Below are positions 36,149 through 57,652 of a stretch of 64,000 nucleotides of DNA, in pieces. The notes beneath the pieces are model-generated. The model made no database searches. It was not told the DNA's origin and saw nothing but the letters and a program-made list of their open reading frames with translations. The position numbers and the translations under genes are program-made. Source of the DNA: Henricia sp. BOLD:AAB3569 (lineage: Eukaryota > Echinodermata > Asteroidea > Spinulosida > Echinasteridae); NCBI GenBank assembly GCA_037783545.1, contig JBBELK010000517.1:434001-498000 (forward strand). Direction: 5' to 3'. Each line of letters opens with the position of its first letter. Within the stretch, counting starts at the first letter, position 1.

Positions 36149-36387
36149 GGTGAAAACTGAAATAGGACAAAGTAGTTATCTATAAAAATTATATACCTAA
36201 TACATTGATTCTCGTTAATTGGTTAAAAGTAGATCATGCGACATGGATTAGTTCAACCATATCCATAAGCAAGTGAAAAAAGTCGCGCGCGTGTGCTGGG
36301 AAGCGGGTCTTCGTGTGAAGCATGCAGTGGCGTCTATGTTTACACGGACAATGCGCATTTATGGCTTGTGTACTTTGGCTCTCGGAA

Positions 36388-39300
36388 AAACTCAGTCTTG
36401 TCCTAAAATACCAGTCATTAGACACACAAAAATCAATGTATGAGTAAGCTTGTGTGGTTTTTTCGGTTCCCGAACTCATTCACTTAAACACAGATTACAT
36501 GATTGGAGAACATTTGAAAACAGGAACACGAGCATTATATAACTATAAAGAATAATGTTGATAAACTGCCTCGTAAAAATTTCAGCCACATACATGAAGT
36601 AATATATTTCACAAAACCTTGAAAATCCATGCATGTTTTTCGTGTTGAATGGTTGGTAAAAATTGTTTGAAAACAATTTTTTTAAACACCTTCAGCTGGC
36701 AATTTCTCCCACAAAGGTACCATTACAGGAAATAAAAAGCATGTGGTGTTATTTGTTACCATTGCTATCACCACTTTAGTTGGGTTTTACTTGTTAATTT
36801 AGGGCAGCTTAGGGCCAATGATTTTCCATTTCAGAAAAACAAAAATTACGTTTCAAAAATCCCAAATTCGGTTTCGGTGACACAAGCAATTTCGCATGTG
36901 AAAGTGCTGCCATTTTGTTTTGCATAAAGGGAGAAAATTCGGAAATTTGACATGGATTTTAGAGCTTCATTTTCTACCATTTAATGGGTGTCTTTTTTTA
37001 GTGTGTTTTTTGTTTTTATTACAAATTAATAATTATTACAATATATTTTGTAATTAATTATCACAAAATTAATAAAACCCTAATTAACATATTACAAATT
37101 ACGAATTAATTAAGTTAAAATTATTTGGCCCGGCCGAGCACCCAGCCAATGGATTCCCCCGCTGAGTGCCTGGCCGGCCGAGCGCCAACCATGCACTTGA
37201 CATTTATTCCCTGTGCTAACTAAGCAAAAACTAATGTAGCCTTTAAAACAGCGTTACAGTAATGAGGGCGCTTTTCATAACATCACATCACCTTTTTTGT
37301 AGCAGCGGCGCCTTAAATTTTATGGACAATTCTGCACGGAAACGGACGTATTTCAACAAGCATAACACAGCAATATTACTTGATCAATTTTTACAGCCAA
37401 ACTATTTTTGAAATGTCCTGGAACTTGTTTGCAGCATGATTATAAAATGGTTACAACTCGAAACTAAACTTAAAATCTCTTTTAAATAGCTTCAATAATA
37501 TGACAAAAATATTACACTATTGTAAAGATCATTTCTTCAGCGTCAAGATAGTACCATTACTGTACGTATAAATTTCCCTTTTGTAGGCCTATAAGAGTAT
37601 GAATTCATATTTTGTATCACTGCACGAAATGTTGTCACGCACGCGCGCGGTTGACACCGCTAATTTGTGTAGTGATGAGCTGTTGATCGAAACAAACATT
37701 AGGCCTAGGTAAAAAAAGATTATCAATTATACCTCGTTCAAGACCAATTCCAATCAAATGATGCTGAATCAAAGGCCAAACGTTTTATCATTACGACGAG
37801 GAATTTCTGTGCAGTTCCTGATCCTGTGAACGTTGACGATCGATCGTTGCATGCACGTTGCTACGTACGCAAATAAATGTATGGCACATTAGTCTGACCA
37901 CCTGCAGTTCTCAGTACTTCCAACCGGCTTAAAGAGTCTGGGTGTTATACAGTGCCCTTGCAAATTAACATTAGCTGCGTTCGTGCTGTGTACTCGTGTT
38001 AACACGAGCGGGATTGTTACCAGCTAACTTTACCCGTACCCGCAGTTCGATACGAGACGAGTGACACTGCCAATTTTTGCAAAGAAAAAACATTTGCTAA
38101 GCATTATTTACAGCCCAATTCGTGGCCAAAAGGTCAAATTCTACAAGATAATTCAAAATTTCTAAACATTAAAATCCATAACAAATAATATGATTTATCA
38201 TAACACATAAGGCCAAAAAAAAAAAAGAACTATGTTTAGCGTAAGTTGAAGTCTCCCAAAATGACACGGCTTTTTTTCGCTTTTTGGGTGTTTTGGTAAG
38301 TGCATTACCTTCCTCCATGATGAAACCAACAGGCATGTTTTTAATCGAAACACTAAAAAAAAGAAACTTTGACGCGCAGGGTTGAAATTAAGTGACGGGC
38401 GCTAACGCTAAACAGAGTTTATCCAATGGTAGCAAATAAACACCACGTTATTTTTTTCCATGTAAAATGGTAGCTTTGTGGAAGAATAAATATTTGTTAA
38501 CTGAAAGTACTTTTTAAGCAGGGTTCGCACCACCGTACACATTCTTAAAGAGGAAGAATCCCCCTTGACGAAAATCCAGCATTTAGGATTTTTTTCGATA
38601 GTCCAAACATCCCTCTTGCCGACGTGGATTTTTATTATTTTTTAATTGTCGGTTTCAAGTAGATAAATTGCAAGCAAAAGTGCGCTTTTCGAAAATGAGA
38701 TTTTCGCGATTTCTGAAACGCTCATTAGGTATTCATGATATGCGCGTGACCCCGTGACGCAATCCTGAGAAAGAGAAGTCAACACGATAGTTAGCTCCAT
38801 ACGTTTACACGCAAACAAATTGAAAAACCGTCTCTTTTAGATGGTGTTTTTTGAAGAATTTTGTTGTTCCAAAAAGCCAGAGATATGCCCAGTAGCTGCG
38901 TGGTTGTATGTTTTACCAGACACTATGAAAAAAAAAAGAGCAGAAATATTTTCTTTTCTATTACCAAGAGAGAGAAAAATGAGTCACTCATTCTATAACT
39001 TGTACGGCCGATGTTCAAACACGTGGAAACTACGCCCGCAGGGGACCGTATACACAGACCTCTGTGAATGCCGTTCGTTCCGTGACAAAACCACCCGTCG
39101 CAATGCACCAGTATTTACTTCAAAAGAGCTTCATTGTGAGCCACAATTTCATCGTTTTTTCACAAAACAGGTAATAGTAGATTGTTGTCATATTACATGA
39201 AGTGTTGTTCACGTTTTTATTTTGAATTACAAGGACAAAATAGGCATGATAAACATTCACTTCGTGTATTTTCCATTCAATACTGCACAGACCGTTTGGT

Positions 39301-40470: not shown

Positions 40471-40491
40471 TGAATCATCGGACGTTGGTAA

Positions 40492-42023
40492 AACGCGGAA
40501 CGCGGAACGTTCCGCGGAACGGAACGCGGAACGTTAATAACTGACCATGTGTGGTATTTTCGGAATCAGCGTCGAAGGGCGAGTTCAAAAATACCACTTT
40601 GGACACCGTCCGACCAAAACTGAATACTGGTCAGTTTTTTTCCAAAATGGCCGAAACTGACCATGTGTGGTATTTCCGGAATCAGCGTCGAAGGGCCAGT
40701 TCAAAAATACCACTTTGGACACCGTCCGACCAAAACTGAATAGTGGTCAGTTTTTTTCCAAAATGGCCGAAACTGACCATGTGTGGTATTTTCGGAATCA
40801 GCGAAACGCGGAACGCGGAACGGAACGCGGAACGGAACGCGGAACGTTCCGCGGAACGCGGAACGGAACGCGGAACGGAACGCGGAACGGAACGCGGAAC
40901 GTTAATAACTGACCATGTGTGGTATTTTCGGAATCAGCGTCGAAGGGCGAGTTCAAAAATACCACTTTGGACACCGTCCAACCAAAACTTAATACTGGTC
41001 AGTTTTTTTCCAAAATGGCCGAAACTGACCATGTGTGGTATTTCCGGAATCAGCGTCGAAGGGCCAGTTCAAAAATACCACTTTGGACACCGTCCGACCA
41101 AAACTGAATAGTGGTCAGTTTTTTTCCAAAATGGCCGAAACTGACCATGTGTGGTATTTTCGGAATCAGCGAAACGCGGAACGCGGAACGGAACGCGGAA
41201 CGGAACGCGGAACGTTCCGCGGAACGCGGAACGGAACGCGGAACGGAACGCGGAACGGAACGCGGAACGTTAATAACTGACCATGTGTGGTATTTTCGGA
41301 ATCAGCGTCGAAGGGCGAGTTCAAAAATACCACTTTGGACACCGTCCAACCAAAACTTAATACTGGTCAGTTTTTTTCCAAAATGGCCGAAACTGACCAT
41401 GTGTGGTATTTCCGGAATCAGCGTCGAAGGGCGAGTTCAAAAATACCACTTTGGACACCGTCCGACCAAAACTTAATACTGGTCAGTTTTTTTCCAAAAT
41501 GGCCGAAACTGACCATGTGTGGTATTTCCGGAATCAGCGTCGAAGGGCGAGTTCAAAAATACCACTTTGGACACCGTCCGACCAAAACTGAATAGTGGTC
41601 AGTTTTTTTCCAAAATGGCCGAAACTGACCATGTTTGGTATTTTCGGAATCAGCGAAACGCGGAACGCGGAACGGAACGCGGAACGGAACGCGGAACGTT
41701 CCGCGGAACGCGGAACGGAACGCGGAACGGAACGCGGAACGGAACGCGGAACGTTAATAACTGACCATGTGTGGTATTTTCGGAATCAGCGTCGAAGGGC
41801 GAGTTCAAAAATACCACTTTGGACACCGTCCGACCAAAACTGAATAGTGGTCATTTTTTTTCCAAAATGGCCGAAACTGACCATGTGTGGTATTTTCGGA
41901 ATCAGCGAAACGCGGAACGCGGAACGTTCCGCGGAACGGAACGCGGAACGGAACGCGGAACGGAACGCGGAACGATGGAACGCAAAACGGAACACGGAGC
42001 GGTGGAATGGAACGGCGGAACGC
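40492..42023 (+). repeat. Left satellite array (higher-order repeat, 116 bp and CGGAACG modules)
   Basis: Module A is 116 bp, starting ACTGACCATGTGTGGTAT and ending near TTTCCAAAATGGCCGAA. Module B is a run of CGGAACG/GGAACG words centred on the perfect palindrome CCGCGGAACGTTCCGCGG. They are ordered A-A-A(short)-B with a 368 bp period (A starts at 40551, 40667, 40919, 41035), and one unit gains an extra A (41287, 41403, 41519; 484 bp period). Module A itself folds: ACTGACCA pairs with TGGTCAGT and GTGGTATTTT with AAAATACCAC. The right part decays into GGAACGATGGAACG-type sequence by 42023. Confidence 0.95.
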
Positions 42024-43390
42024 TCACAATTAAGTAGGCCTACGTATATGTCTGGACGTGATATGAAGTCGGCGGTGGTGTTTTGGTCCGTCCATATATA
42101 ATGTCGCCTCTTTACGCATATGCGTATAGCCATTTTTATGTAGGCCTGGAGTATGTATTTTAGCGGTTTCGGCACATCATATAGGCTCCACCGACTTGAG
42201 AAACATGCTTGCGCGCCAATAGGCCGGCCTATTCATAACATTATTTCCATATAATCGTATAACGCGCGCCCGGAGAATAGACGCAAAAAATGCAACGCAA
42301 CTGCATGACGGAAACAATCGGCAAAGGTTTTACATTTAGCCTTTTGACAAGGCCTCGTGGATTTAGGCGATTTGGTGACTTGGGTCAGTCTACACACGCC
42401 GAGTGGCTCATTCACTCGGCCTATTTCGAACTGTGCAATATGTTTTATATAGTAGGCCTATGCTTTTAAAGCCAGCCGTACACCTTGCGTTCCGATTCCG
42501 TTGCGATTGCACATACGCCAAATTTCTATCATGCTCGAAATTCTGCGATTGCGTTGTGACGGACACGTACACAAAATCGTGACCACATCGCCATCGGAAC
42601 GCATCGCAAAACCCGTACACCTTGTGATGCGCGCGACTGCACAACTTGCACTATCGTGATGATCGATCCATCGCTGATCGACGTCTTGCCGACGAATTTG
42701 CACAGAACGAGCTGTGTTGTGTCTTAACCAGGCGTTTCAGGGATGCGGAATATTGGGATATTTTATTTACGGACATGCTGTTTCAAGCGATCGAGGTCAA
42801 AGTTCTGCCGCATAACTTCTGGAGCATTGTGTCGTCGTTGCAGGATAACTTTTGGAGCGTGCGAACTCGGCCAAGATCTGAGCTGTCGATGGTTGAATCG
42901 CAGCTACCGCAGAAATAATGGCCCAGTCAAGGTTCACACACGAATAGCAATTCTTGAGTAAATCTGGGAATGGTTATTGGCTGCCTCGGGATGATTCTGG
43001 TAGTTTGGTGAAAGATCGGGAAGCGCCCCGACAATTTTGGACATGTCCCAAATTGTCCGGGTGTTTCGGGAACAAATTTCAATTTTTGGTTCATTCTTGT
43101 TTAATTATTAACTAATTCTGGATATTCTTACAGAATTCTGATAAGTTTCGTAGAGTCATTCTTGAGTATTAACAGTCCAGAACCATGCTGAATCATTACG
43201 AATGTATTAAGAACTGTACGAATATTCCAAAATAACTTGCGAATATGATTCTGTAGTTTTTCGAACATCATTCGTGACAACATCGTCACATTTCGGTTTT
43301 ATTCTGTACTAAGTCGCAATCATTCGGCTTGATTCAGTCTGATTCTGCTTCCAATTCGTATTAAACTAGTTCGTGATTATTCTTATTTTG
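42024..43390. other. Interior of the giant transposon, left part, no recognisable gene
   Basis: CG-containing sequence with overlapping open frames on both strands (42408-42918) that resemble nothing known. 42475-42625 contains CGTACACCTTG direct words and may be another worn MITE. From 42960 to 43390 I see nothing definable. Confidence 0.45.
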
Positions 43391-43913
43391 TCCACTGTGC
43401 GATTTTTGCCACGAATTTCCAAAGATTAGCTACGATTTGGTACGATAACCAGAGACAATATTACCTAATCTTACCTAATCGTACCTAATCGTTTGAAATT
43501 CGTAGCAAATATCGCACAGTGGGAGGCCCGCTTTAAGCGGGCCTCCCACTGTGCGATTCTTGCCACGAATTAGGTACGATTCGGTACGATTGTGTATAGA
43601 CTTTATATACACAATCGTACCAAATCGTACCTAATTCGTGGCCAAAATCGCACAGTGGGAGGCTTCTTTTAAAGCAGGCCTCCCACTGTGCGATACGAAT
43701 TTAATACGAATTGGTACGATTAGGTACGATTGTGTGTAGAGTCTATAGGCAGTCTGCGATAATCTTACCAATTCGTGGCAAATATCGCACAGTGGGAGGC
43801 CTGCTTAAGCGGGCCTCCCACTGTGCGATTTTTGCCCCGAATTTTCTACGATTAGCTACGATTAAATTTTCGCGCTAGAAGGTGTTAACGAAGGCGTGTG
43901 AGTTATGCGCCTA

Positions 43914-44190
43914 TCAATTGTCCCCCCCCCCTCCCCCTCCCCCGCTACCCCACCTACGAGGTGGGGATTGTCACTTTTTGCGTGACAAAATACCCACCCC
44001 TGGGGCAACATTTAGGTGACAAAAATCCCCACCCTCGGGTGCAAAACATGCGCAAAAATGCACAGATACTGGGCCAAATGCCCCACCCTGGGGCATGAAA
44101 ATGTGACCAAACCCCCACCTAGGGGGTGGGGTAGCGCGGGGGGCGGGGGGGGGGGGGGGGAGAGGTGGGGGAAACAATTGATAGGTGCAT
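43914..44190. mobile_element. MITE TATGCGCCTATCAATTGTCC, nested in the cluster
   Basis: Ends TGCGCCTATCAATTG and CAATTGATAGGTGCA, with long C and G homopolymer runs beside them and ACCCCACC / GGTGGGGT inside. The G and C runs are prone to assembly error. Confidence 0.75.
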
Positions 44191-44480
44191 TATTGTTGAG
44201 ATCTTCATATATATGTCGTACTGATTCGCCATAGGTCGGGACAGGTCGCGTGTTTATTCAGATCGTGTTGATTATTGTTGACATCGTGTCGATTCTCGTG
44301 CGATTTTTGCCACGAATTTTGAACGGTTAAAGCTGGCCTCCCACTGTGCGATTTTTGCTACGAATTAGGTACGATTAACTACGATTTGGTACGATTGTGT
44401 ATACACTATACACACAATCGTAACAAATCGTACCTAATCGTACCTAATTGGCAAAAATCGCACAGTGGGAGGCCCGCTTA

Positions 44481-45440
44481 AGCCCCGGTCACAACGAACC
44501 CACAACGCATTTGTGCCACGACACGACAGAAGATTTGGGCAAATCGTGGGTCATCGGGGGTCGTCGCAAGATCGACAGTCCTAAGAAATTGTGAGCATCG
44601 TGGCATCGACTTGCCGTCGTGAGGCAAAATTGGACATGCACCTTTTTTGCTCGACGATATTTTGTGGTATCTATGTCTTGTGGCTATCGTGAGTCTGTCC
44701 TACGACAGTCTTGCGACAGTCTTGCGACTGTCGTGTGATAAATATCTTGTCGTGGGTACCAGAGGACTTTTTTTTAGTCAAACAATCTTACGACTGTCGC
44801 ACGACTGTCCTACGACTGTCTGACGACTGTCGCAGGACAGTCGTGAGACAGTTGCAAGATTGTCTTACGAATATTATATGTCGTATGAGGGCTCGCACAC
44901 GGTCTGTCGTGCGTTAGTCTTGCGTTAGTCTTGCAACATATTTTTGTTTTTTGAGGGGTATATAGCTCCGGCGAATGAACGCTTGTTGAGCGACGATTTT
45001 GTGTAGTATCTATGTCTTGTGGCTGTGGTGAGTCTGTCCTACGACAGTCTTGCGACAGTCTTGCGTTATATAGTCGGGAGACGGACGCGCGAGCGTCCCA
45101 CGAGTGACCCACGACTGTTGTGCGAGTCGCAAGACTGTCGCACGCGCATCCCACGAGTGAACCACGACCTGATCACGTGATAAACAGCCCCCGAAAATGC
45201 CCGACAACTCACGATGATCCCACGACTGTCCCACGACTGACTTGCGACACACCCACGACATAACCACGACATATCTTTTTTTTCTGTCGCGTCCCCATCG
45301 CCAAACCATCTTTAATGTGTCGTAGCCCTTGTGAGCACTTGAAATAGATTTCGGGCATGCATGTTGCAAGATCTGGCCACGAAAAATATTTTATGGGTGT
45401 ACCACGACAAAATTTCGTACGATCCGTTGTGGCCCGGGCT
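44481..45440. mobile_element. MITE AGCCCCGGTCACAACGAACC, nested in the cluster
   Basis: Left end AGCCCCGGTCACAACG and right end CGTTGTGGCCCGGGCT. The interior is a maze of CGACAGTCTTGCGACTGTCG words in both orientations, including GACGGACGCGCGAGCGTCCC. It interrupts one member of the CACTGTGCGA hairpin family. Confidence 0.75.
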
Positions 45441-45664
45441 TTAGGTACGATTTTGTACGATTGTGTACAGAGTCTATAAACAGCCTCTGGTAATCTCACC
45501 AAATCGTACCTAATCGTTGCAATTTCGTGGCAAAAATCGCAAAGTGGGAGGCCCGCTTTGAATACCGCCCCTGTTGTTTATGGCATATTCGGCAACTAAG
45601 GCCCTTTATGCCATCAACTATACGGTTTTCGCTTTAACTACACTATATTATAAACTTGAGATGA

Positions 45665-45845
45665 CGAAGAATGAGTTGCATTTTTATAAGTGGGAGGAAA
45701 ACCCCCCAGAGAAATGGCCCAGGGGAAAACCCACGCGGTAAAGTATATAGGGACTGCAAACCCAATCCACATAAGTACATACACGCCCCGGATTCGAACC
45801 GCCCCTGTCTGGCCAGTGTCCATATTGAACAACGGTCGCCTCAAC
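45665..45845 (-). mobile_element. tRNA-derived SINE-like piece joined to the LINE relic
   Basis: On the minus strand, GGTTCGAATCCGGGGCG is a good RNA polymerase III B box. It is preceded by a tRNA-like TGGCCAGACAGGGG stretch and followed by a unique tail ending CTCCCACTTATAAAAATGC. The 5' A-box part is degenerate. Confidence 0.4.
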
Positions 45846-46650
45846 TCAAATACAGTGACTGGACCCTCGAGCGAGTCCCATTCGTCTGAACTTAAACACC
45901 TATGAACGAAATTGCAGAAGAAATTAACAGCATTGTGACTAATTAAAGGGGCAGAATATAAATCCGAATAAAAATCCTTGCACTGTTTAGTCATTTCTTG
46001 TGAATTAGAAATTAAATTACCATCTTTATTTTTTAAATGTGGCATACGCTTCAGGTCATCGTTGTTGTTAATATTAAAACATTAATTTCACCGTAAATTT
46101 TCGGGCATTTAAGTATGGTGGAATTGTTGTGATAATGCTTTTTCTATATGACTCAAATAACTTAAATCGAACATCTTTAACCTTATCGCCAAAAGAAGAA
46201 TCACCGTTGTGACATTTAAGTTGGAAACTGCCGCTCGTTTTAGGCCCAATTTTCCTTTCCTACCACCAGTTTACTAAATTTTGAAATGGTGTGGTCGGAC
46301 CAAGGTAAAGCGACAATTTTACTGTGGGAACCCACAGACAACTTCTGCGACAGATAAATACGGTCGATTCTTGTCTCTTTGCTTTGTTCTTTGTTGTGCC
46401 ATGTGTATGACCTCTGGCCGGGGTTTTGTTCCCGCCAGCAGTCGACCAATTTAAAATTGTTAATTCACTTAATTCCCTATTACCGTATTCTCCCCATTTA
46501 GAATCAATAACCACTGCAGGTCTGGAAAACAATTAAAATCTCCCCCAAAACGACTGATAAGCAAAATGTATAATTCACACCCCTATTCTCTCCTATTTGT
46601 GTCATAAATGTGTGTTTTTCCTCGTACTCACGTAGCGATTCCAAACTGTC
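45845..46650 (-). pseudogene. Degraded LINE fragment (endonuclease and start of reverse-transcriptase region)
   Basis: Read on the minus strand with frame changes. GGDFNCFPDL (about 46520-46550) is the endonuclease motif GGDFN. WREQNPGQRSYTWHN, ETRIDRIYLSQ and SDH follow at 46260-46450, as in apurinic-type endonucleases of L1/Tx1-like LINEs. Then LKNKDGNLISNSQEM and KDFYSDLYS at 45950-46045 form the typical link toward the reverse transcriptase. The catalytic part is absent: the fragment ends near 45845 against an unrelated SINE-like piece. Stops and frameshifts show it is dead. Confidence 0.75.
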
Positions 46651-46979
46651 CGCCATGTTTTATTATTTGCAACTTTTACACGGTTATAGGTGACGTCATT
46701 ACACCAAGCCTTACACCAGAGACTTGCCCGGGGCAGTCTCGTGTATCACGTGGTGGCTGGAAGAACACTCCGGTGCAAGTTGATGTTACAAGGTGTAAAA
46801 ATTTCGAACGCCCCTTATATAAAGGGACTCTCTGACAAGGAACAAGGGAGTACACCCTTAGTCGGTATCCTAGGATGGCACTTCTTTCGCTCCTCAGAGA
46901 AAAATAAAACAACAATAATAATGGTGGTTTCGTTGCCTGGGAATAGACCTTTCTGGGTTTTTGCACAAATGTAGGCCTA

Positions 46980-47284
46980 CAGCGGACCTTTTGACATGTA
47001 TAGATTTGTATTCCTGATAGTATATGTAGTGCCGAAGTGTGACGTTTGCCATGGTAATTGGCTTCAAACATCATGGCTGCCAGATAAAACACCATTGTAA
47101 AAGCACAGGAAACGGTTCAGTGATTTTTAGTGTAGAGCCATATAAAGCAACCAACAATAAGCAACTAACAATAGGGTGACATATTCACTTGGGTAGTGTA
47201 TACTTTCGCTAGATGACGTTTCGCAATAACCGATATAATCGGGAACCAATCTACTAATGTCAACCAATGTCAAAGGTCCGCTGT
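46980..47284. mobile_element. MITE with ACAGCGGACCTTT ends, intact copy
   Basis: Left end ACAGCGGACCTTTTGACAT and right end ATGTCAAAGGTCCGCTGT are inverted repeats. The GGGAACCAATCTA word near the right end is shared with the copy at 55905-57083. There is no coding potential. Confidence 0.7.
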
Positions 47285-47568
47285 ATCATGCTAATTCCAC
47301 TTTGTGCGGAAACTCCAAAAGGTCCGATGCCAGCAGCACTGATACCCAATGTCTTGTCATATTACAAAGAGAGAACTAATCATTTTTATCAAGAATTTGC
47401 ATAATCAGACCACGTTCTTTTGTTCTTGAAATAACGTTCATTTTTTTATTGGCAAGACTCGTGATGTAAACAATCAAAACATGTGCGTATATACATTTAA
47501 GGATCATTGCATGTGCTTTGCAGCAGTTACATGAAAGAATGGAACATAAAAACCAAAAAAAATCTTAA

Positions 47569-48175
47569 ATACGTGCCTTTACGGTTCCCCCACAATTCAC
47601 TGCGCGCGGTACATGGGTAGTGCATGATGGGATACAAATCTAGTGCAATCGCAGAAGCGCGCACTGTGTCCGGTACACAAATGAATGTGATTCCGGAAGT
47701 GAGTGACGGTTCTCGGCTGCCTATAGAACTCATAAAACGCAGCCAATTTGTGTTTTTGACACAAATTGTATTAAATAAGTTAACTGGTAATCTAGAGCTT
47801 CAGATACAGATTCAATCTACTGTATATCTGTTTTGGGATTATATCGGTGTCTCGGGGTGGAATAATTGAGATGACTGTCACGAAGTTGACGACTACGGTA
47901 CCGCAACACAATGACCGTGCATGACGCATTGAGTGCGTGGGCGTCTTCTCGGTACACTCATTTCGTCGTGCACGGTCATTGTGTAGCGTTATCGCAGTCA
48001 TCAACTTGTGACAGTCATCTTAATTATTCCACCTCTAGATACCAATATAATTCCAAAACAGACATATAGTAGGTTTGGAGTGTACTTTTGGGAGTGTACT
48101 AGAATTGTATCCCATCATGCACTTCGTCATGTACCGCGCGCAGTGAATTGTGGGGGTACCGCAAAGGCACGTATT
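47569..48175. mobile_element. Foldback element inside the giant transposon
   Basis: Left ATACGTGCCTTTACGGT mirrors right ACCGCAAAGGCACGTAT. Inner arms CACAATGACCGTGCATGACG and GTGCACGGTCATTGTG are centred at about 47945. The arms include ATGGGTAGTGCATGATGGGA. No gene is recognised. Confidence 0.75.
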
Positions 48176-49611
48176 CCTTCAACCATCATATGGAGTGTTG
48201 ACATGAAGCAATCGTGGTGCCACGTAGTAGGAATGTTGGGTAACAACCATATATCTGTAGTTGTGATTATTTAGTATCAAAAATAGTTCAGTGGCAGTCC
48301 AAATGCAATGCATTATACACTATAAAAGTTCTTGTAATTTTACATATAAATCTGGACTGTTTTTAGATGTTAAAAATTTTAAAATACATTTAGCTGTAAT
48401 TAGTATGTATTAAGAACCAAATACACTGTAATAAAACACCGAATATGTATTTTAACACAAATAGGGCCTACGTTTAAATTACAAATTTGTAATTGTGCAT
48501 GCCGTTTGGAAAAATACAACACACTGCAAATAACTGCTGTATTTTTACATAGATATTGACTCTTATAAAAAGGTCATGATTTTTGGGCGTGAAAATGGGA
48601 TTTGTAGAAGCGAATCCTACTCGTGTGAAAGTGCACAATGACCATCCATCTACGTTGGTCATAGCCCCACTATGATTAACGTGTCTATGTCTCTGGACAA
48701 GGCATTTAAACCCAGCTGCATTGTCTACCCAAGCGATATTTGTGAAGCTGTTGCGGGGAATACCACAATCTAGCTGTAATGGGGATGTGCGCCTTGCCCG
48801 AGTAGGCAAAATAGTTTATTTTAAAGCAGCTACTTGAATGAAGATAAACCATAAATGAACTGAAAGTTTAAGTTTCAAAGTGTATGTTTCAAAAAGTCAA
48901 TATGCAGTTGCATTACATAATAACAACTTGCCAAAAGCTTTGAAGTCGAAGTTACACCACCTAAAACACCGATGTCACCAAAGGTCAAATATTGCTTGCC
49001 TAGCGAAAGTGACGTCACATCATACGCATCGTGGGCGCGCTTCATTCACTGCACATCTGACGTTCATTGCAAACTTTTTGGGGCAATATTGCATTAAATG
49101 ATTATACGGGAAGATTTAGAATTACATTTAGATTATACATGTACAATGTAAGTGCATGATTACAGCAACAAAGAAGATGAAAAGGGCGCCGGGGAAGTAG
49201 GTGAAATAAATCGGAGGTTGCACAACGGAGAAATGACGCAGCCGGAAAGATGAGATGTACAAAATTGTTTGACCAGTTCTGAATAATTTCCAGTTTAGTC
49301 TTGCGCATGGAAATACAAATGTAAAGCGAAAAAACGAAACACTCGAAATAATTTATGTTTGAAGAGGAATAGTATTAAACTTTGTATTCCTGTAATTCGT
49401 TCCGACTTTCGACGCTTCTGTAAACGATACGGGTGCCTTTTCAATTCAGTACATGTATTACCAGTCCAGAGAGACTGAGATTGCCGCGTCGGCGTGTATG
49501 CCGCGCCCATCGGTACGGTGGCGGTCATGCGGGACCAACCAGGCGAAAATGCGGGGGATGCGGTGCCAGCCACCGACCCAGCTAGGCTGTAAGGATTGCA
49601 TTGGTATTAAA

Positions 49612-50750
49612 TGGAACATCGGCTTACTGTTTACATAATGTGGCAATGTAGCATCCTTGACAATTATTTGTCGATGGTCGTTGTGAAAATAAAATTATCA
49701 AAATGTCACGTAATTAACTAACAAATTTTACAATTAACAAAAATGACAAAATAATGTTGGGCCATACGCTTTACCAGCCGTCGCTATGTATTATGTATCA
49801 TGTGTTTGTAAATAAAGGTGGCGTTCTATATTGGTCAACACGTGTTTAACCTCGTTTCCTTGTTTTCCCTGACTCATCACACCTTGCATTATCCCTCAGG
49901 TCAGCGCTGACTCGAAGAAGCAACTCGAACTCAACCTTTGGGTGTCTTTAGCGCCCGCAATAGGCCTATATACATTTTTTATGCCTATGCTGTTTTTCTT
50001 CGGATATTTTTTTATCGCCGCGAAGCGAAGACGCGAAAATCTGAGAGATTCTCTTGACCATATCAACACCCAGAAACCCTTTTTATTTTTTCTGTTGGCA
50101 GATTTTTTGTGTACAAATTGAACAATACGGTATGTACATAGTGTTCGTATGACACTATGGCTGCGTTCGGGTGTGCAGTTCTCGTTACTCGGGAGTAATG
50201 CGTGCGCATTGCACTCGGGTCACATCACGCGAACGGCAAGTCCGCAGTCCGCGTGCGCGAATGGCAATCAGTGAAGATGGACGTCTCTTGCCATCACTGC
50301 ACAAACAAATGCCGTTTCATTGCTCACAAGAAACTGAGGATATACAGGCCGTAAGTCGTGAGAACTTTTAATGCCGTCCAAAACAAACCTTAGTGAGTTG
50401 TTGTTTCAGTTATCTAGTTGACACGCCATCTTGGTACAAATCACATGATACTCGTCAGGAGTAAGAGCACTCTCCCCATTTGTTGGGGAGTACCGAGAGC
50501 ATACTCTCACTGACCCGAGTGTCGTTATTCTTGCCGTTCGCGCGCGCAGGAGTATACTCGTGTTAACACGAGTACACGCCCGAACGCAGCCTAGATGTTC
50601 GGATAAATAACGTGACCTTTTTTTTATTTTTTAAATTGCTCAAAAACGGCAACATTTTTTCCCCAGGTTTTCTTCAGTCTATTTCGGAAAAACTTTCAGA
50701 ATCATGTATGGGTCTATTTCTAGCCCAACAAAGCCGGTATGTACCTTTAA
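49612..50750 (+). repeat. Interspersed repeat, copy C
   Basis: Shares GTTTGTAAATAAAGGTGGCG, GACTCATCACACCTTGCAT and GCGCTGACTCGA with the window start (1-521), and TGTCACGTAATTAAC, ATACGCTTTACCAGCCG and CTGTTTACAT with 12655-13415. Together the three copies outline a repeat of 1 kb or more in the same orientation. There is no coding evidence. Confidence 0.7.
50159..50592. mobile_element. MITE GGCTGCGTTCGGGTGTGCAG
   Basis: Ends GGCTGCGTTCGGGTGT and ACACGCCCGAACGCAGCC. The right half holds ACTCGTGTTAACACGAGT, a perfect palindrome also present in the arms of the 37701-40442 foldback element. It is inserted inside an older repeat (49612-50750). Confidence 0.78.
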
Positions 50751-51499
50751 GGTTTTGCTATTGTTGCCTTCCCAAGTATTGAGGGTTTACCCAGGGTGTG
50801 GGCAATCAGTTAAAAAGTTAATAGAAGACTTCGAGGAAGGGGAAAACAGCGCGCGCACGCGAACCCCGCCAAGGTCAACACACTTTAGCAAAAGTTTGGT
50901 GACCTTAGCGGTGCCCGCGCGCACTGTATTCATATCACGTGAATATGGGGATGGTTTTTAATTGGCCAGCTACATTTATTTTAGCTCTAGCACTTGGCTC
51001 ATCACCCCCGCACACGTGAGATTTTGGCCACGCGAGGCCAAAATTATCAAACACGTTAGATATTTGTCTCAAGTGGCACGAGTGACCAAATGCTCACGTA
51101 AGTTGCCCGCACACGAGAGCTATCTCCTTACGCCATCGGCCACGAATGAATTTTGGCTCAGCACATAGCTCTCGTGTGCGGCGGGCTTTATGTGTACGCT
51201 TAATACCATGATACTAGCCTGCATAGCACCACACTGCGCAACGTACCACTGTAAAATATGCGATACACGTGTCACTCTCGTGTCAAATTCGGTACTGTAA
51301 CATTGCTTGTACCGTTCGAGAATTGTGAAGCAAAAATATTGTGATTTCGGGGTCATAAATCATTCACGGTGTGTGTTTTATTTTTGAATACAGAAATTCC
51401 CTAAGGTACATTGCCTCCAGTACATCGTGCTTTAGTAGTGTAGATGTACATGTACGTGTCGCTAACTTTATAGGCGAAAGTACTGTACATGCACTGAAA

Positions 51500-52197
51500 A
51501 TGGCTGTGTACATGAAGCGCAACAGGGCGCTCATGGTTGAAGAGGCTGTTTACATACTTCAACGGCCCGACATGTCAAAGGCAATTATCGCACCCCCTGT
51601 AAAACCAAAAAACGGGGAGATTTATCTGTTCGCTTGGGCCGCAGACCCTGATAAAAAAAGAAGACTGGCGTTGTGATCAGTTGCGATGGACACGGGGGTG
51701 TGAAGATGTTACCCAAAAGCAAACCTCAAGTACGCAAGTACTATCACCGAAGTGGGGAATTTACGAGGTCAGCGTACGTACCTCTTAATAATGTGGTGGC
51801 TCTCGTACTTGTCCACTACCTGGGGGATCCAACTGGGTCTGTGTTGAGTGCCAAGCAACCCCATGGCAACGCAAAAACACACACATCTCGTCCTTACATC
51901 CGTTCGTGTCCATCTGTACTTACAAACATCGCAAAAGAGGTTGGGACTAAGGACCCCCAAGCAGTATATAGGAAATTGACAAGCACAAATGTCAAACCTC
52001 AACATGTCCCTGTCCTCCATCCTAAAAGCACAGAGCAGGTTCGAAACAAATTAAAGTTCGAAAAACAGAAGGGGAGGCTTACCCATCATGATGACGAGAT
52101 TTACAACGTGTATGAGTTGAATGAGCAACTTGGGGAGTATGTCTGTCATTTGACAATAATCCCCTTCCTATTTCTTGGTCGAAATTGGTATTTTTGA
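51500..52197 (+). pseudogene. Frameshifted ORF with a CG-1-like DNA-binding segment, cut off by the right satellite array
   Basis: The reading frame starts at ATG 51500 (MAVYMKRNRALMVEEAVYIL), passes GEIYLFAWAADPDKK and changes frame twice, at an A7 run near 51653 and a G5 run near 51693. Between these runs frame three reads EDWRCDQLRWT. It resumes with VKMLPKSKPQVRKYYHRSGE and LVLVHYLGDP up to about 52150, and meets the array at 52187. The order 'K..G..YLF..K..R..DW..D..RW......LP....VRKYY......F.R..Y.......VLVHYL' resembles the CG-1 domain of CAMTA-type proteins. The downstream PHGNAKTHTSRPYIRSCPSV segment resembles uncharacterised proteins common in marine invertebrate genomes, which I associate with DNA transposons from memory only. 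It could be the DNA-binding part of this transposon's own lost transposase. Two homopolymer indels could also be sequencing errors. Confidence 0.55.
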
Positions 52198-55143
52198 ACT
52201 CGCGTTTCGACGCTGATTCCGAAAATACCACGAATGGTCAGTTTCGGCCATTTTGGAAAAAAACTGACCACTATTCAGTTTTGGTTGGACGGTGTCCAAA
52301 GTGGTATTTTTGAACTCGCCCTTCGACGCTGATTCCGGAAATACCACACATGGTCAGTTTCGGCCATTTTGGAAAAAAACTGACCAGTATTAAGTTTTGG
52401 TCGGACGGTGTCCAAAGTGGTATTTTTGAACTCGCCCTTCGACGCTGATTCCGAAAATACCACACATGGTCAGTTATTAACGTTCCGCGTTCCGTTCCGC
52501 GTTCCGTTCCGCGTTCCGCGGAACGTTCCGCGTTCCGTTCCGCGTTCCGTTCCGCGTTCCGCGTTTCGCTGATTCCGAAAATACCACACATGGTCAGTTT
52601 CGGCCATTTTGGAAAAAAACTGACCACTATTCAGTTTTGGTCGGACGGTGTCCAAAGTGGTATTTTTGAACTCGCCATTCGACGCTGATTCCGGAAATAC
52701 CACACATGGTCAGTTATTAACGTTCCGCGTTCCGTTCCGCGTTCCGTTCCGCGTTCCGCGGAACGTTCCGCGTTCCGTTCCGCGTTCCGTTCCGCGTTCC
52801 GCGTTTCGCTGATTCCGAAAATACCACACATGGTCAGTTTCGGCCATTTTGGAAAAAAACTGGCCACTATTCAGTTTTGGTCGGACGGTGTCCAAAGTGG
52901 TATTTTTGAACTCGCCCTTCGACGCTGATTCCGGAAATACCACACATGGTCAGTTTCGGCCATTTTGGAAAAAAAACTGACCAGTATTAAGTTTTGGTCG
53001 GACGGTGTCCAAAGTGGTATTTTTGAACTCGCCCTTCGACGCTGATTAACGAAAATACCACACATGGTCAGTTATTAACGTTCCGCGTTCCGTTCCGCGT
53101 TCCGTTCCGCGTTCCGCGGAACGTTCCGCGTTCCGTTCCGCGTTCCGTTCCGCGTTCCGCGTTTCGCTGATTCCGAAAATACCACACATGGTCAGTTTCG
53201 GCCATTTTGGAAAAAAACTGGCCACTATTCAGTTTTGGTCGGACGGTGTCCAAAGTGGTATTTTTGAACTCGCCCTTCGACGCTGATTCCGGAAATACCA
53301 CACATGGTCAGTTATTAACGTTCCGCGTTCCGTTCCGCGTTCCGTTCCGCGTTCCGTTCCGCGTTCCGCGGAACGTTCCGCGTTTCGCTGATTCCGAAAA
53401 TACCACACATGGTCAGTTTCGGCCATTTTGGAAAAAAACTGACCAGTATTAAGTTTTGGTCGGACAGTGTCCAAAGTGGTATTTCCGCGTTCCGTTCCGC
53501 GTACCGTTCCGCGTTCCGCGGAACGTTCCGCGTTCCGTTCCGCGTTCCGTTCCGCGTTCCGCGTTTCGCTGATTCCGAAAATACCACACATGGTCAGTTT
53601 CGGCCATTTTGGAAAAAAACTGGCCACTATTCAGTTTTGGTCGGACGGTGTCCAAAGTGGTATTTTTGAACTCGCCCTTCGACGCTGATTCCGGAAATAC
53701 CACACATGGTCAGTTTCGGCCATTTTGGAAAAAAAACTGACCAGTATTAAGTTTTGGTCGGACGGTGTCCAAAGTGGTATTTTTGAACTCGCCCTTCGAC
53801 GCTGATTCCGAAAATACCACACATGGTCAGTTATTAACGTTCCGCGTTCCGTTCCGCGTTCCGTTCCGCGTTCCGCGTTCCGTTCCGCGTTCCGTTCCGC
53901 GTTCCGCGTTTCGCTGATTCCGAAAATACCACACATGGTCAGTTTCGGCCATTTTGGAAAAAAACTGACCACTATTCAGTTTTGGTCGGACGGTGTCCAA
54001 AGTGGTATTTTTGAACTCGCCATTCGACGCTGATTCCGGAAATACCACACATGGTCAGTTATTAACGTTCCGCGTTCCGTTCCGCGTTCCGTTCCGCGTT
54101 CCGCGGAACGTTCCGCGTTCCGTTCCGCGTTCCGTTCCGCGTTCCGCGTTTCGCTGATTCCGAAAATACCACACATGGTCAGTTTCGGCCATTTTGGAAA
54201 AAAAACTGACCAGTATTAAGTTTTGGTCGGACGGTGTCCAAAGTGGTATTTTTGAACTCGCCCTTCGACGCTGATTCCGAAAATACCACACATGGTCAGT
54301 TATTAACGTTCCGCGTTCCGTTCCGCGTTCCGTTCCGCGTTCCGCGGAACGTTCCGCGTTCCGTTCCGCGTTCCGTTCCGCGTTCCGCGTTTCGCTGATT
54401 CCGAAAATACCACACATGGTCAGTTTCGGCCATTTTGGAAAAAAACTGGCCACTATTCAGTTTTGGTCGGACGGTGTCCAAAGTGGTATTTTTGAACTCG
54501 CCCTTCGACGCTGATTCCGGAAATACCACACATGGTCAGTTATTAACGTTCCGCGTTCCGTTCCGCGTTCCGTTCCGCGTTCCGCGGAACGTTCCGCGTT
54601 TCGCTGATTCCGAAAATACCACACATGGTCAGTTTCGGCCATTTTGGAAAAAAACTGACCAGTATTAAGTTTTGGTCGGACAGTGTCCAAAGTGGTATTT
54701 CCGCGTTCCGTTCCGCGTACCGTTCCGCGTTCCGCGGAACGTTCCGCGTTCCGTTCCGCGTTCCGTTCCGCGTTCCGCGTTTCGCTGATTCCGAAAATAC
54801 CACACATGGTCAGTTTCGGCCATTTTGGAAAAAAACTGGCCACTATTCAGTTTTGGTCGGACGGTGTCCAAAGTGGTATTTTTGAACTCGCCCTTCGACG
54901 CTGATTCCGGAAATACCACACATGGTCAGTTTCGGCCATTTTGGAAAAAAAACTGACCAGTATTAAGTTTTGGTCGGACGGTGTCCAAAGTGGTATTTTT
55001 GAACTGGCCCTTCGACGCTGATTCCGGAAATACCACACATGGTCAGTTATTAACGTTCCGCGTTCCGTTCCGCGGAACGTTCCGCGGAACGTTCCGTTCC
55101 GCGTTCCGCGGAACGTTCCGCGGAACGTTCCGCGTTCCGCGTT
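52187..55143 (-). repeat. Right satellite array, same family in inverted orientation
   Basis: The same modules as the left array but reverse-complemented. The basic units are about 240 bp (one A plus one shortened A and B) with extra A modules. A still larger unit is duplicated: segments beginning at 53207, 53229, 53409 and 53449 recur at 54435, 54457, 54625 and 54665, a shift of 1216-1228 bp. It is about twice the length of the left array, as unequal exchange would produce. Confidence 0.95.
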
Positions 55144-55410
55144 TTACCAACGTCCTGAATCATCAAAACAGATCATCCAAAAGGCTCTAGACCTTTATCC
55201 ACGGACGTAGGCCTATTATATTTCACGGTGCGTCCATCTTGTCTGGTTCTCCTGAAGTACGTGTCGGGGACGATCAGTCCGTCTGCGCGTCCGCGCGATA
55301 GCGCGTGTAATCTCCCGTTGAGAATCACTGTCCACGCTGCGCACTCTCTTGATCGCGCAAAGCCTGTACTAGGCTGTGACATTGTGATGGGTGTGGGTGA
55401 AAAACGGACG

Positions 55411-55768
55411 CTCCGGATCCTTCCAGATCTTCCGGATCTTCCGGATCTTTTTCAAAAATGGCTATTTAATGAACAGAAAGTGCTTAGTTTGACTTCTTAA
55501 TACGCTTCCATACCTTTTACCGCCATGTACAGGCCTTATTTTTAAAGATCCGGCGTGGAAAAAAAACCAATTTCTTTTTTCTTAGTGTCCTGCACTTCCT
55601 ACGCCTATTTCTTCGAAAATTTCACTTTGTGGATAGTCGATGTGGTGTATGATTACAAATTAGTGCAATACATGGTAATAAAAGGTATGTAAGCGTATTT
55701 AGAAGTCAAACTAGGTACTTTCTGTTCGTTAAATATCAATTTTTAACAAAGATCCGGAAGATCCGGAG
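55411..55768. mobile_element. MITE CTCCGGATC with ~100 bp arms
   Basis: CTCCGGATCCTTCCAGATCT at the left and GATCCGGAAGATCCGGAG at the right. The arms share AGAAAGTGCTTAGTTTGACT and its imperfect complement. It lies just outside the right end of the giant transposon. Confidence 0.75.
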
Positions 55769-55904: not shown

Positions 55905-57083
55905 TGATAAAGGTCTATAGATCTGTTCGGGGTTTTTCTCACACAATGGAATTAGCATTATATTCATGTATTTTTGGTACAGCGGACCTTTAACATACTA
56001 TGGACTAGACAGAATAATTCTGTCCCTACGGATTTCCCGTAGGGACAGAAGGTTCCTCTTTCATACAGTGGATTGTTGTCATTCTGCCTGGAAATTAGAA
56101 TCACACCCAAATATTTCCTCCTAGTTGTGTCCTACAGTGGTTTTAGATGTGCATGATTGGAAAATGATTGGAAAGAAATACTTACAATCACCGTTTTTGA
56201 AGCCAAACGTTGCTCTCACATTCAAACTCAACAGCAGTTCCTGTCGTGACCGTGTTCATACATGTGTAAATCTCGACGTGAAATCTCGCGAGAATGTACA
56301 CTAGTTGGGCCTGCCCAATGCCCAATTGCAGACGGACTGTATCAAGCCGTATCGTTAATCGGGCACAAATACATTTACACGTACGCAGTCCTTTCCGTGC
56401 CGCTAGCGCTGTACGCACTGAGGAAATGACTTGGCTGCTCTTTCCGACGGCTGTTTCATTACTTAACACTTAATGTCAACCATGTCCACTTACTAAAATG
56501 TGGACAAAAGTGTTAAGTAATGAAACAGCCGTCGGAAAGAGCAGCCAAGTCATTTCCTCAGTGCGTACAGCGCTAGCGGCACGGAAAGGACTGCGTACGT
56601 GTAAATGTATTTGTGCCCGACTAACGATAAGGCTTGATACAGTCCGTCTGCAATTGGGCATTGGGCAGGCCCAACTAGTGTACATTCTCGCGAGATTTCA
56701 CGTCGAGATTTACACATGTATGAACACGGTCACGACAGGAACTGCTGTTGAGTTTGAATGCGAGAGCAACGTTTGGCTTCAAAAACGGTGTTGTAAGTAT
56801 TTCTTTCCAATCATTTTCCAATCATGCACATCTAAAACCACTGTAGGACACAACTAGGAGGAATAATTTGGGTGTGATTCTAATTTCCAGGCAAAATGAC
56901 AACAATCCACTTGATGAAAGGAAAGCTGACTGACTAACTATGGACCGGTTCCTAATCCTATCGCTTATTGCGGAATACCATCCCTAGCGGGAACCAATCT
57001 ATAAATGTCAAAGGTCCGCTGTACCAATTTTTAATGATATGCTAATTTCATTGTGTTCGTAAACCCTGAACAGGTCTATTTTA
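55905..57083. mobile_element. MITE with ACAGCGGACCTTT ends, split by the foldback element
   Basis: The left part near 55905-55996 (TAGATCTGTTCGGGGTTT ... TACAGCGGACCTTTAACAT) is mirrored at 57000-57083 (TGTCAAAGGTCCGCTGTACC ... ACCCTGAACAGGTCTA). The foldback element 56006-56936 sits inside it. A second member without that insertion is at 46980-47284. Confidence 0.7.
56006..56936. mobile_element. Foldback element (family TAGACAG), second copy with nearly perfect arms
   Basis: Same ends as the element at 33713, and again a 9 bp flanking duplication, ACTATGGAC (55997-56005 and 56937-56945). The two arms of about 400 bp (56090-56495 and 56505-56890) are almost identical, so it could form one very long hairpin centred near 56500. 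An open frame lies in mirror image in both arms (56188-56469 minus, 56498-56857 plus), an arithmetic result of the palindrome rather than a gene. Confidence 0.8.
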
Positions 57084-57448
57084 AGATATCGGCCTACTTG
57101 TCTTCCCACATGCACTTTTGTCGCAAATGTTGCATTTCTGAGATAAATAAATGATAAAATTACTGCAGAAAGTAATGCACAAAATTACGGCGCGAGCGGT
57201 CCGTGCGTATTAAGCGCGACAACAGGAGGCGCTGCGCGCACGCGGGAATAGTTATCTTTTGCCGAAAGCCAAAGTACACAAGCCATAAATGCGCATTGTC
57301 CGTGCTTTACACGAAGACCCGCTCCCCAGCACACGCGCGCGACTTTTTTCACTTGCTTACTGAAATGTTTAAACTAATCTAACGAGAATCAATGTATTAG
57401 GTGTATAATTTTTACAGATAACTACTTTGTCCTATTTCAGTTTTCACC

Positions 57449-57652
57449 ATGGGATGTGGATCGTCCAATGCTGCAGTGAGCTACCAAGCTGACATTAACA
57501 CCATGTGGGACCAGGTCAGCCGAACCATCGACATACAGAGAAACAAGGAAAAGAACCTGGTCATACGACGTTCCGGTTGGAAGACTGTTAGGATATTTGT
57601 GTCTTCTACCTTCAGGGACTTTCATGCGGAAAGAGAAATATTAGTCAAAGAG
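57449..57652 (+). CDS. Right gene exon 1
   Basis: 68 codons from ATG to AAAGAG, then GTATGC donor. The protein is identical to left exon 1. Two silent changes are visible (glycine and isoleucine codons near residues 40-43). Confidence 0.92.

What the first reader, a model, noticed from the sequence alone, without database searches (positions are those of the whole stretch)
40471..55164. One giant foldback transposon whose terminal inverted repeats are satellite arrays, bounded by a perfect 9 bp target duplication
Seen directly: the outer ends of the two inverted arrays are exact reverse complements (GGACGTTGGTAAAACGCGG ... CCAACGTCC), and the nine bases outside each end are identical and in direct orientation (TGAATCATC at 40471-40479 and 55156-55164). 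Homology between the two sides stops exactly at these points. Known: Drosophila FB and sea urchin TU elements have ends made of tandem repeats; MULEs and FB elements make 9 bp duplications. Inference: what looks like two separate satellites is a single 14.7 kb element, with complex higher-order repeats as its ends. I know of no described element with this module composition.
Basis: partly seen in the sequence, partly recalled or inferred. Interest (0 to 1): 0.92.

Follow-up and report, generated by a model that had tools for sequence, protein, structure and literature searches.

The report
Foldback transposon with satellite-repeat ends
A 14.7-kilobase stretch of what appears to be an animal genome looks like a single jumping gene whose two ends are mirror-image arrays of satellite repeats, a rare but already described kind of transposon; its damaged gene may carry a DNA-binding domain suited to those repeats.

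Summary
TGAATCATC flanks 40480-55155 in direct orientation. The element's ends are perfect inverted repeats for 42 bp, and the tip GGACGTTGG occurs nowhere else in the window. Two random 9-mers of the flanking sequence match with probability about 1.2e-5.

Both arms, 1,519 and 2,978 bp, are built from the same two modules: a 116-bp unit in subtypes a and b, and a CGGAACG-type minisatellite block. These form higher-order repeats, since rearranged separately in each arm. I read it as one foldback-type cut-and-paste DNA transposon.

The kind is known. Rehavkus-1_TC of Tribolium is 9.5 kb with inverted termini holding a 164-bp satellite. Tetris and Tm1 are similar. This is most likely a new, non-autonomous member of the MULE/Rehavkus type. 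No catalytic domain was found, so the superfamily is inferred.

[quoted passage not shown]). CG-1 proteins bind CGCG boxes; the arms hold 119. That link is suggestive only. No genome was held, so other copies and empty sites are untested.

The parts
40471..40479 (+). left copy of the 9-bp target-site duplication, TGAATCATC
55156..55164 (+). right copy of the 9-bp target-site duplication, TGAATCATC
40480..40521 (+). left terminus: 42 bp exact inverted repeat (11-nt tip GGACGTTGGTA, then minisatellite)
   Evidence: GGACGTTGG occurs only at the two ends
55114..55155 (-). right terminus: 42 bp exact inverted repeat of the left end
40480..41998 (+). left arm (1,519 bp): M Ua Ub uM Ua Ub uM Ua Ua Ub uM Ub uM; U = 116-bp unit (a or b by one site, AATACTGG or AATAGTGG), u = its first 33 bp, M = CGGAACG-type block. 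Minisatellite degenerates at the inner edge to about 42022
52178..55155 (-). right arm (2,978 bp), same modules in inverted orientation, with a private 1,216-bp duplication containing a chimeric 181-bp uM module; ends inward in a 66-bp decayed partial unit (52178-52243)
40491..40538 (+). terminal M block, left; first CGCG box starts at the 14th base of the element
55049..55144 (-). terminal M block, right
41999..52177 (.). core (10.2 kb): no intact gene recognised; palindromic repeat clusters, LINE-like remnant, broken transposase-like gene start
   Evidence: 78 of 78 core ORFs of 55 aa or more scanned against Pfam (recount)
51500..52176 (+). broken gene start, about 226 codons in three frame segments (frame changes at an A run and a G run), CG-1-like at its N-terminus; runs outward and is cut off by the right arm. 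Called transposase-like from recall, not from a call
46243..46464 (-). remnant like the C-terminal end of an exonuclease-endonuclease domain, read as a non-LTR retrotransposon relic
   Evidence: Pfam Exo_endo_phos E 0.0055, below cut-off; NCBIfam xth E 0.0089, below cut-off

Best explanation
40480-55155 is one foldback-type cut-and-paste DNA transposon, now non-autonomous. It inserted as a unit and made a 9-bp target duplication (shown by anatomy). Its terminal inverted repeats consist of an 11-nt tip, a CGCG-rich minisatellite block M, and higher-order repeats that alternate a 116-bp unit (subtypes a and b) with further copies of M. The likely mechanism: a transposase supplied in trans recognises the tips plus repeated subterminal sites in M, pairs the two arms and moves everything between them (inferred, by analogy with Galileo). 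The arms grow and shrink by unequal exchange or replication slippage inside each arm (inferred from private higher-order duplications). By build and duplication length it most likely belongs to the MULE/Rehavkus (foldback) type; this is inferred, since no catalytic domain was found.
For: Exact 42-bp inverted ends and a direct 9-bp duplication at those exact ends; chance per pair of 9-mers 1.17e-5. Both arms carry the same two modules: 4 of 4 uM modules on the left and 7 of 10 on the right directly follow a Ub unit. The 21 full units differ as much within an arm as between arms (means 3.21 and 3.17 differences; 2456 of 5000 label shuffles reach the observed difference), so both arms descend from one array. 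For 13 of the 21 units an identical unit exists, each time in the same arm, as expected from later local amplification. In 14 of 14 uM modules M starts with the same AAACGCGGAACG as the terminal block, so subterminal sequence is what has multiplied, as suggested for Tetris. A 9-bp duplication is the length listed for Rehavkus and several MULE groups and the commonest for Tm1. Rehavkus-1_TC has a satellite in its inverted termini.
Against: Only one copy was seen: no genome is held, and patterns from the tip and the unit found nothing in viral contigs. No DDE domain was found in 78 of 78 core ORFs of 55 aa or more, so the superfamily rests on duplication length and build. The core looks much older than the arms, so part of it may be nested later insertion or carried host DNA. 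Arm lengths differ twofold. The Mutator survey gives Rehavkus ends of 26-400 bp with a minisatellite before the 3' end only, which differs from two long repetitive arms.
Confidence: 0.85

Rival explanations
1. Composite element: two solo arms or half-elements of one foldback family inserted near each other, and a later transposition using only the outermost tips moved both arms and the 10 kb between them.
For: The core is decayed and heterogeneous (palindrome clusters, LINE-like relic), as expected of captured host DNA. Each arm has its own inner-edge decay.
Against: Neither inner edge carries the GGACGTTGG tip, so if there were two elements each must have lost its inner end. The broken transposase-like gene sits directly against the right arm, as the gene of a single element could.
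Confidence: 0.15
2. Two independent satellite arrays in inverted orientation, with a chance 9-bp match at their outer edges.
For: The arrays differ in length and each has private variants and higher-order repeats.
Against: The tip occurs only at the two outer edges and in inverted orientation. The direct duplication at exactly those points has a chance near 1e-5. Both arms share the same modules in a recurrent order.
Confidence: 0.02
3. Assembly artefact: one real array joined in inverted orientation by mis-assembly of a heterozygous genome.
For: Long inverted arrays are hard to assemble. A separate inverted repeat pair (30629-36390 with 57257-61619) flanks the region, and no reads could be checked.
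Against: The arms differ in length and in private variants, and a mis-join would not create a direct 9-bp duplication flanked by unrelated sequence.
Confidence: 0.03
4. A foldback-like element of another superfamily (P/Galileo-like or Merlin-like), in which the transposase-like fragment is an unrelated neighbour relic. This disputes only the superfamily, so it overlaps the best explanation and the odds do not add to 1.
For: Foldback build has arisen in different superfamilies; Galileo is a P-type element. No catalytic domain was found here.
Against: P-type elements make shorter duplications (recalled), and no THAP domain was found in the 78 core ORFs scanned.
Confidence: 0.12

Closest known systems
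Rehavkus-1_TC (Tribolium castaneum), Rehavkus group next to MULEs
   Same: Large element (9.5 kb) whose inverted termini hold tandem arrays of a satellite unit (164 bp, mostly five and eight monomers) (PMC10218199 passages). The Rehavkus group has 9-bp duplications (PMC6446971 passages).
   Different: One satellite unit rather than two alternating modules. The Mutator survey lists Rehavkus ends of 26-400 bp, a minisatellite before the 3' end, a PHD finger, and hosts among arthropods and annelids; no PHD finger was found here.
Tetris (Drosophila virilis)
   Same: Foldback, apparently non-autonomous, arms with about 220-bp tandem repeats, 8-10 bp duplications, 37 bp shared by outer domain and arm repeats (PMC4079207 abstract, sections 10 and 19, passages).
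   Different: Arms up to 1,735 bp with an outer domain of up to 866 bp; no apparent coding capacity; no alternating minisatellite mentioned in what I read.
Tm1 (root-knot nematodes)
   Same: Composite arms of several motifs with variable copy number and unequal arm lengths; 8-10 bp, mostly 9-bp, duplications (45 of 53 elements); Mutator/Foldback by its title (PMC3169594 passages).
   Different: Repeat unit of 13-15 bp, asymmetric end motifs; one example is 1,080 bp.
Drosophila FB/NOF and sea urchin TU
   Same: Long inverted ends made of short tandem repeats; FB makes 9-bp duplications (recalled; the Tetris paper lists a sea urchin element as a foldback).
   Different: Units of 10-31 bp or 15 bp, and 8-bp duplications for TU (recalled).
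Galileo (P superfamily)
   Same: Internally repetitive long ends with multiple transposase binding sites (PMC3688188 abstract).
   Different: P-type transposase with THAP domain; none found here.

Membership tests
Foldback-type elements (structural class) | Long terminal inverted repeats made of tandem repeats | tested here: met
   Arms of 1,519 and 2,978 bp made of shared modules
Foldback-type elements (structural class) | Target-site duplication at the tips | tested here: met
   9 bp, exact
Foldback-type elements (structural class) | Several dispersed copies sharing the ends | not testable with these tools
   No genome held; no other tip in the window
MULE superfamily | 8-11 bp target-site duplication | tested here: met
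   9 bp, or 10 if asymmetric; lengths of 8-11 in the table passages
MULE superfamily | MULE-type DDE transposase, in the element or acting in trans | tested here: inconclusive
   No DDE hit in 78 of 78 core ORFs of 55 aa or more; only a gene start with a CG-1-like N-terminus remains. A non-autonomous element need not carry one
Rehavkus | Minisatellite or satellite repeats at the termini, 9-bp duplication | tested here: met
Rehavkus | Terminal inverted repeats of 26-400 bp with a minisatellite before the 3' end (Mutator survey) | tested here: inconclusive
   Here 42 bp are exact, but repetitive arms of 1.5 and 3 kb lie at both ends; the two papers seen describe Rehavkus ends differently
Rehavkus | PHD finger in the transposase | tested here: inconclusive
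   No PHD hit in the core ORFs, but the gene is cut off before any C-terminal part
Tetris/DAIBAM | Outer domain shared with DAIBAM and TIR-220 sequence | not tested
   Sequences not in hand
Galileo (P superfamily) | THAP-type DNA-binding domain and P-type transposase | tested here: inconclusive
   No Pfam THAP hit in the core ORFs, but the element may be non-autonomous

The most novel reading that the evidence does not exclude
The element belongs to an undescribed foldback lineage whose transposase starts with a CG-1 (CAMTA-type) DNA-binding domain. The minisatellite M in its arms is an amplified array of that domain's CGCG-box binding sites, so the satellite is a transposase docking array kept by selection on transposition. 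The broken gene start is the remnant of the element's own transposase, with its catalytic part lost where the right arm now begins.
Probability: 0.3. Interest if true: 0.72.

Novelty: new member of a known kind. Interest (0 to 1): 0.45.

Why it matters
It ties two satellite arrays to a single mobile element with an insertion footprint, and it shows unit-level homogeneity between arms together with arm-specific higher-order amplification. That makes it a good case for how transposon ends become satellites. If the CG-1 and CGCG-box link holds, it would help explain why foldback ends are repetitive: the repeats would be multiplied transposase binding sites. For Galileo the THAP domain was footprinted on the ends and further sites were identified in the tandem repeats (abstract). 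I saw no such report for a foldback MULE in the one listing that bears on it (10 of 16 papers listed). A gel-shift assay with the domain and one M block would test it.

Tried and rejected
Independent satellites and chance duplication: rejected.

Empty-site paralogue inside the window: the joined 400+400-bp flanks found no unoccupied copy. A 326-bp part of the left flank has an inverted copy at 37711-38036 that stops 64 bp before the insertion point; a 44-bp part matches 50557-50599 in the core; a 99-bp part of the right flank matches 55669-55767.

Relatives of the gene start: none in viral contigs (4 pattern matches, none confirmed) or genome contigs (49 pattern matches, none confirmed); none convincing in the PDB (best E 0.69 and 0.9) or NCBIfam (only FlgE, E 0.31). 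Structure prediction from the single sequence was poor (mean pLDDT 45.3), so no fold search was made.

CG-1 caution: the first, shorter query gave E 0.078. I then lengthened it upstream to an in-frame ATG because I expected the CG-1 N-terminus there (and changed the letters at one frame change), and got E 0.0019, 18.4 bits against a cut-off of 23.5, profile 4-114 of 116. The upstream piece alone gave no hit and the downstream piece alone gave E 0.15; the unjoined frame gave only VirB8, E 0.24. Five controls (one reversed, four shuffled) gave nothing. With about 80 proteins scanned, an E of 0.0019 somewhere is expected about 0.15 times. An implausible family (Gemini_AC4_5) reached E 0.005 on another ORF, so this is weak evidence.

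CGCG-box caution: 37 and 82 vCGCGb sites in the arms against shuffle means of 7.0 (highest 16) and 16.8 (highest 29) in 500 shuffles each is not independent evidence, because one repeat unit is copied many times. The fair question is how often a 12-bp unit of such make-up holds a CGCG box: 605 of 49,294 at any GC, 531 of 8,873 at 58% GC or more, and 531 of 2,492 if two CpGs are also required. The match is therefore unremarkable to mildly surprising. The idea arose after I had seen the sequence.

Self-folding as single-stranded DNA: z -2.95 and -1.68 for two 116-bp units, -4.16 for the left terminal block, -3.59 for a uM module (4 of 4 sequences folded). The M blocks are palindrome-rich; I draw no functional conclusion.

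Paper searches that gave nothing useful: TU elements/sea urchin/foldback found only Tetris; MULE with sea urchin and tandem repeats found 0; MULE-NOF with satellite found 0.
Full report
1. Is it there? Yes. TGAATCATC stands at 40471-40479 and 55156-55164 in direct orientation. Immediately inside, the sequence is an exact inverted repeat for 42 bp. The tip GGACGTTGG and the longer ACGTTGGTAAAACG occur only at these two places in 64 kb, one on each strand. Outside the 9 bp nothing continues in the sequence printed. The left flank and the element's last base are both C, so a 10-bp duplication with an asymmetric right end cannot be excluded. Two random 9-mers from the flanking sequence match with probability 1.17e-5. 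A window-wide scan for exact ends with 8-11 bp duplications gave, in the part I could see, mostly register matches inside the arrays plus a few short or palindromic cases; its output was cut in the middle.

2. The arms. Split at the start of the 116-bp unit, the left arm reads M Ua Ub uM Ua Ub uM Ua Ua Ub uM Ub uM. The right arm, read inward, is M Ua Ub uM* uM Ub uM Ua uM Ub uM Ua Ub uM* uM Ub uM Ua Ub uM Ub uM Ua Ub and a 66-bp partial unit. U is 116-118 bp; a and b are assigned by one site, and a few units are mixed at other sites. u is the first 33 bp of U. M is a block of CGGAACG/CGGAA steps that begins AAACGCGGAACG in 14 of 14 uM modules and ends TTAAT in 11 of 14. A Ub precedes 4 of 4 uM modules on the left and 7 of 10 on the right; the other three follow uM* (two) or Ua (one). 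M* marks a 181-bp chimera of uM and the second half of U. It occurs twice, only in the right arm, 1,216 bp apart, which marks a private amplification. Tandem Repeats Finder reports, among others, periods of 368 and 484 bp on the left and 240 and 358 bp on the right. Among 21 full units (8 left, 13 right) the mean pairwise difference is 3.21 within arms and 3.17 between arms; 2456 of 5000 label shuffles reach the observed difference. For 13 of 21 units an identical unit exists, each time in the same arm. The simplest history is one ancestral higher-order array present at both ends, followed by exchange inside each arm. Both inner edges are decayed: minisatellite on the left to about 42022, and a partial unit on the right at 52178-52243.

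3. The tip. The terminus is 11 bases followed by an M block that starts with the same AAACGCGGAACG as the internal M blocks. Subterminal sequence has therefore been multiplied through the arm. Tetris shows something alike, a 37-bp stretch shared by its outer domain and its repeats.

4. The core. In the 10.2 kb between the arms I recognised no intact gene. I scanned all 78 stop-to-stop ORFs of 55 aa or more against Pfam, at E up to 1 and up to 0.1 (recount). No transposase catalytic domain appeared. A LINE-like relic (46243-46464, minus strand) matches the end of the exonuclease-endonuclease domain below cut-off (E 0.0055). Clusters of short palindromes lie at 43392-45559 and an inverted repeat at 47568-48175. 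Other sub-threshold hits (VirB8, HATPase_c_4, YEATS, an LRRK2 propeller, TILa, PDE8, MLIP, Gemini_AC4_5) look like noise.

5. The broken gene start. From an ATG at 51500 the plus strand can be read for about 226 residues in three frame segments, with a frame change at an A run near 51655 and one at a G run near 51695, up to the edge of the right arm. Read with X at the frame changes, it matches only one Pfam family, CG-1, over almost the whole domain (positions 4-114 of 116) with E 0.0019 and 18.4 bits, below the curated 23.5. A shorter first query gave E 0.078; five controls gave no hit. From memory, the fragment resembles the N-terminal part of an animal family of MULE-like proteins, just upstream of their catalytic domain; no call confirmed this. 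Two searches of the paper library (CG-1 domain with transposase; CG-1, MULE, transposase, CAMTA, any three) listed 1 and 3 papers, none of which by its title and abstract start reports a CG-1 transposase. Tm1 appears there because of a nematode locus called Cg-1.

6. A possible link. CG-1 proteins bind (A/C/G)CGCG(T/C/G) (PMC10417383 passages). The arms hold 119 such sites, 101 ACGCGG and 18 CCGCGG, most often 12 or 7 bp apart. None of the 119 lies in any of the 21 full 116-bp units, and the first starts at the 14th base of the element. The density is 24-28 per kb, against 1.4 in the flanks and 2.3 in the core. Because a repeat unit is counted many times, the fair chance that a 12-bp unit contains such a box is 1% at any composition and 6% to 21% at matched composition. 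So the link is a hypothesis. It has a precedent in Galileo, whose long ends hold repeated binding sites for the transposase's THAP domain (PMC3688188 abstract).

7. What it works like and what it is. It works like a foldback transposon: paired long ends, insertion with a 9-bp duplication, arms of variable repeat number. As to membership, duplication length and satellite-built ends fit Rehavkus and MULE-type foldbacks, although the Mutator survey gives Rehavkus shorter ends with a minisatellite on one side. The transposase criterion could not be settled, because no catalytic part was found. I therefore file it as a new, non-autonomous member of the foldback kind, most likely MULE/Rehavkus type, not as a proven Rehavkus.

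8. Limits. No genome is held, so copy number, empty sites and an autonomous partner are unknown. The organism is not identified; a rhodopsin-family receptor gene in the window fits an animal. The two frame changes lie in homopolymers and could be sequencing errors. Part of the core may have been inserted after the element landed.

Noticed in passing
30629-36390 and 57257-61619: A collinear inverted repeat pair, 92-97% identical over its five longest pieces and broken by insertions in each copy, flanks the element on both sides; two copies of another mobile element, a segmental inverted duplication, or mis-joined haplotypes.
   Followed up: partly
15236-16447: A 312-aa rhodopsin-family receptor frame (Pfam 7tm_1 E 1.2e-33); the region coding its last helix is the first of 3.7 tandem 94-bp copies at 16097-16447.
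   Followed up: partly
56058-56920: A palindrome of about 863 bp that matches its own reverse complement at 96%.
   Followed up: no
43392-45559: Cluster of short palindromes with motifs such as GGCCTCCCACTGTGCGAT inside the element's core.
   Followed up: no
47568-48175: A 608-bp inverted repeat inside the core, possibly a nested MITE; no flanking duplication of 2-11 bp at its exact ends.
   Followed up: no
18147-18234: An 88-bp stretch with 15-bp exact inverted ends and a 9-bp flanking duplication CACTTCGCC, possibly a tiny MITE.
   Followed up: no
23220-23332: About 14 copies of the 8-bp unit GGTTAAAC.
   Followed up: no
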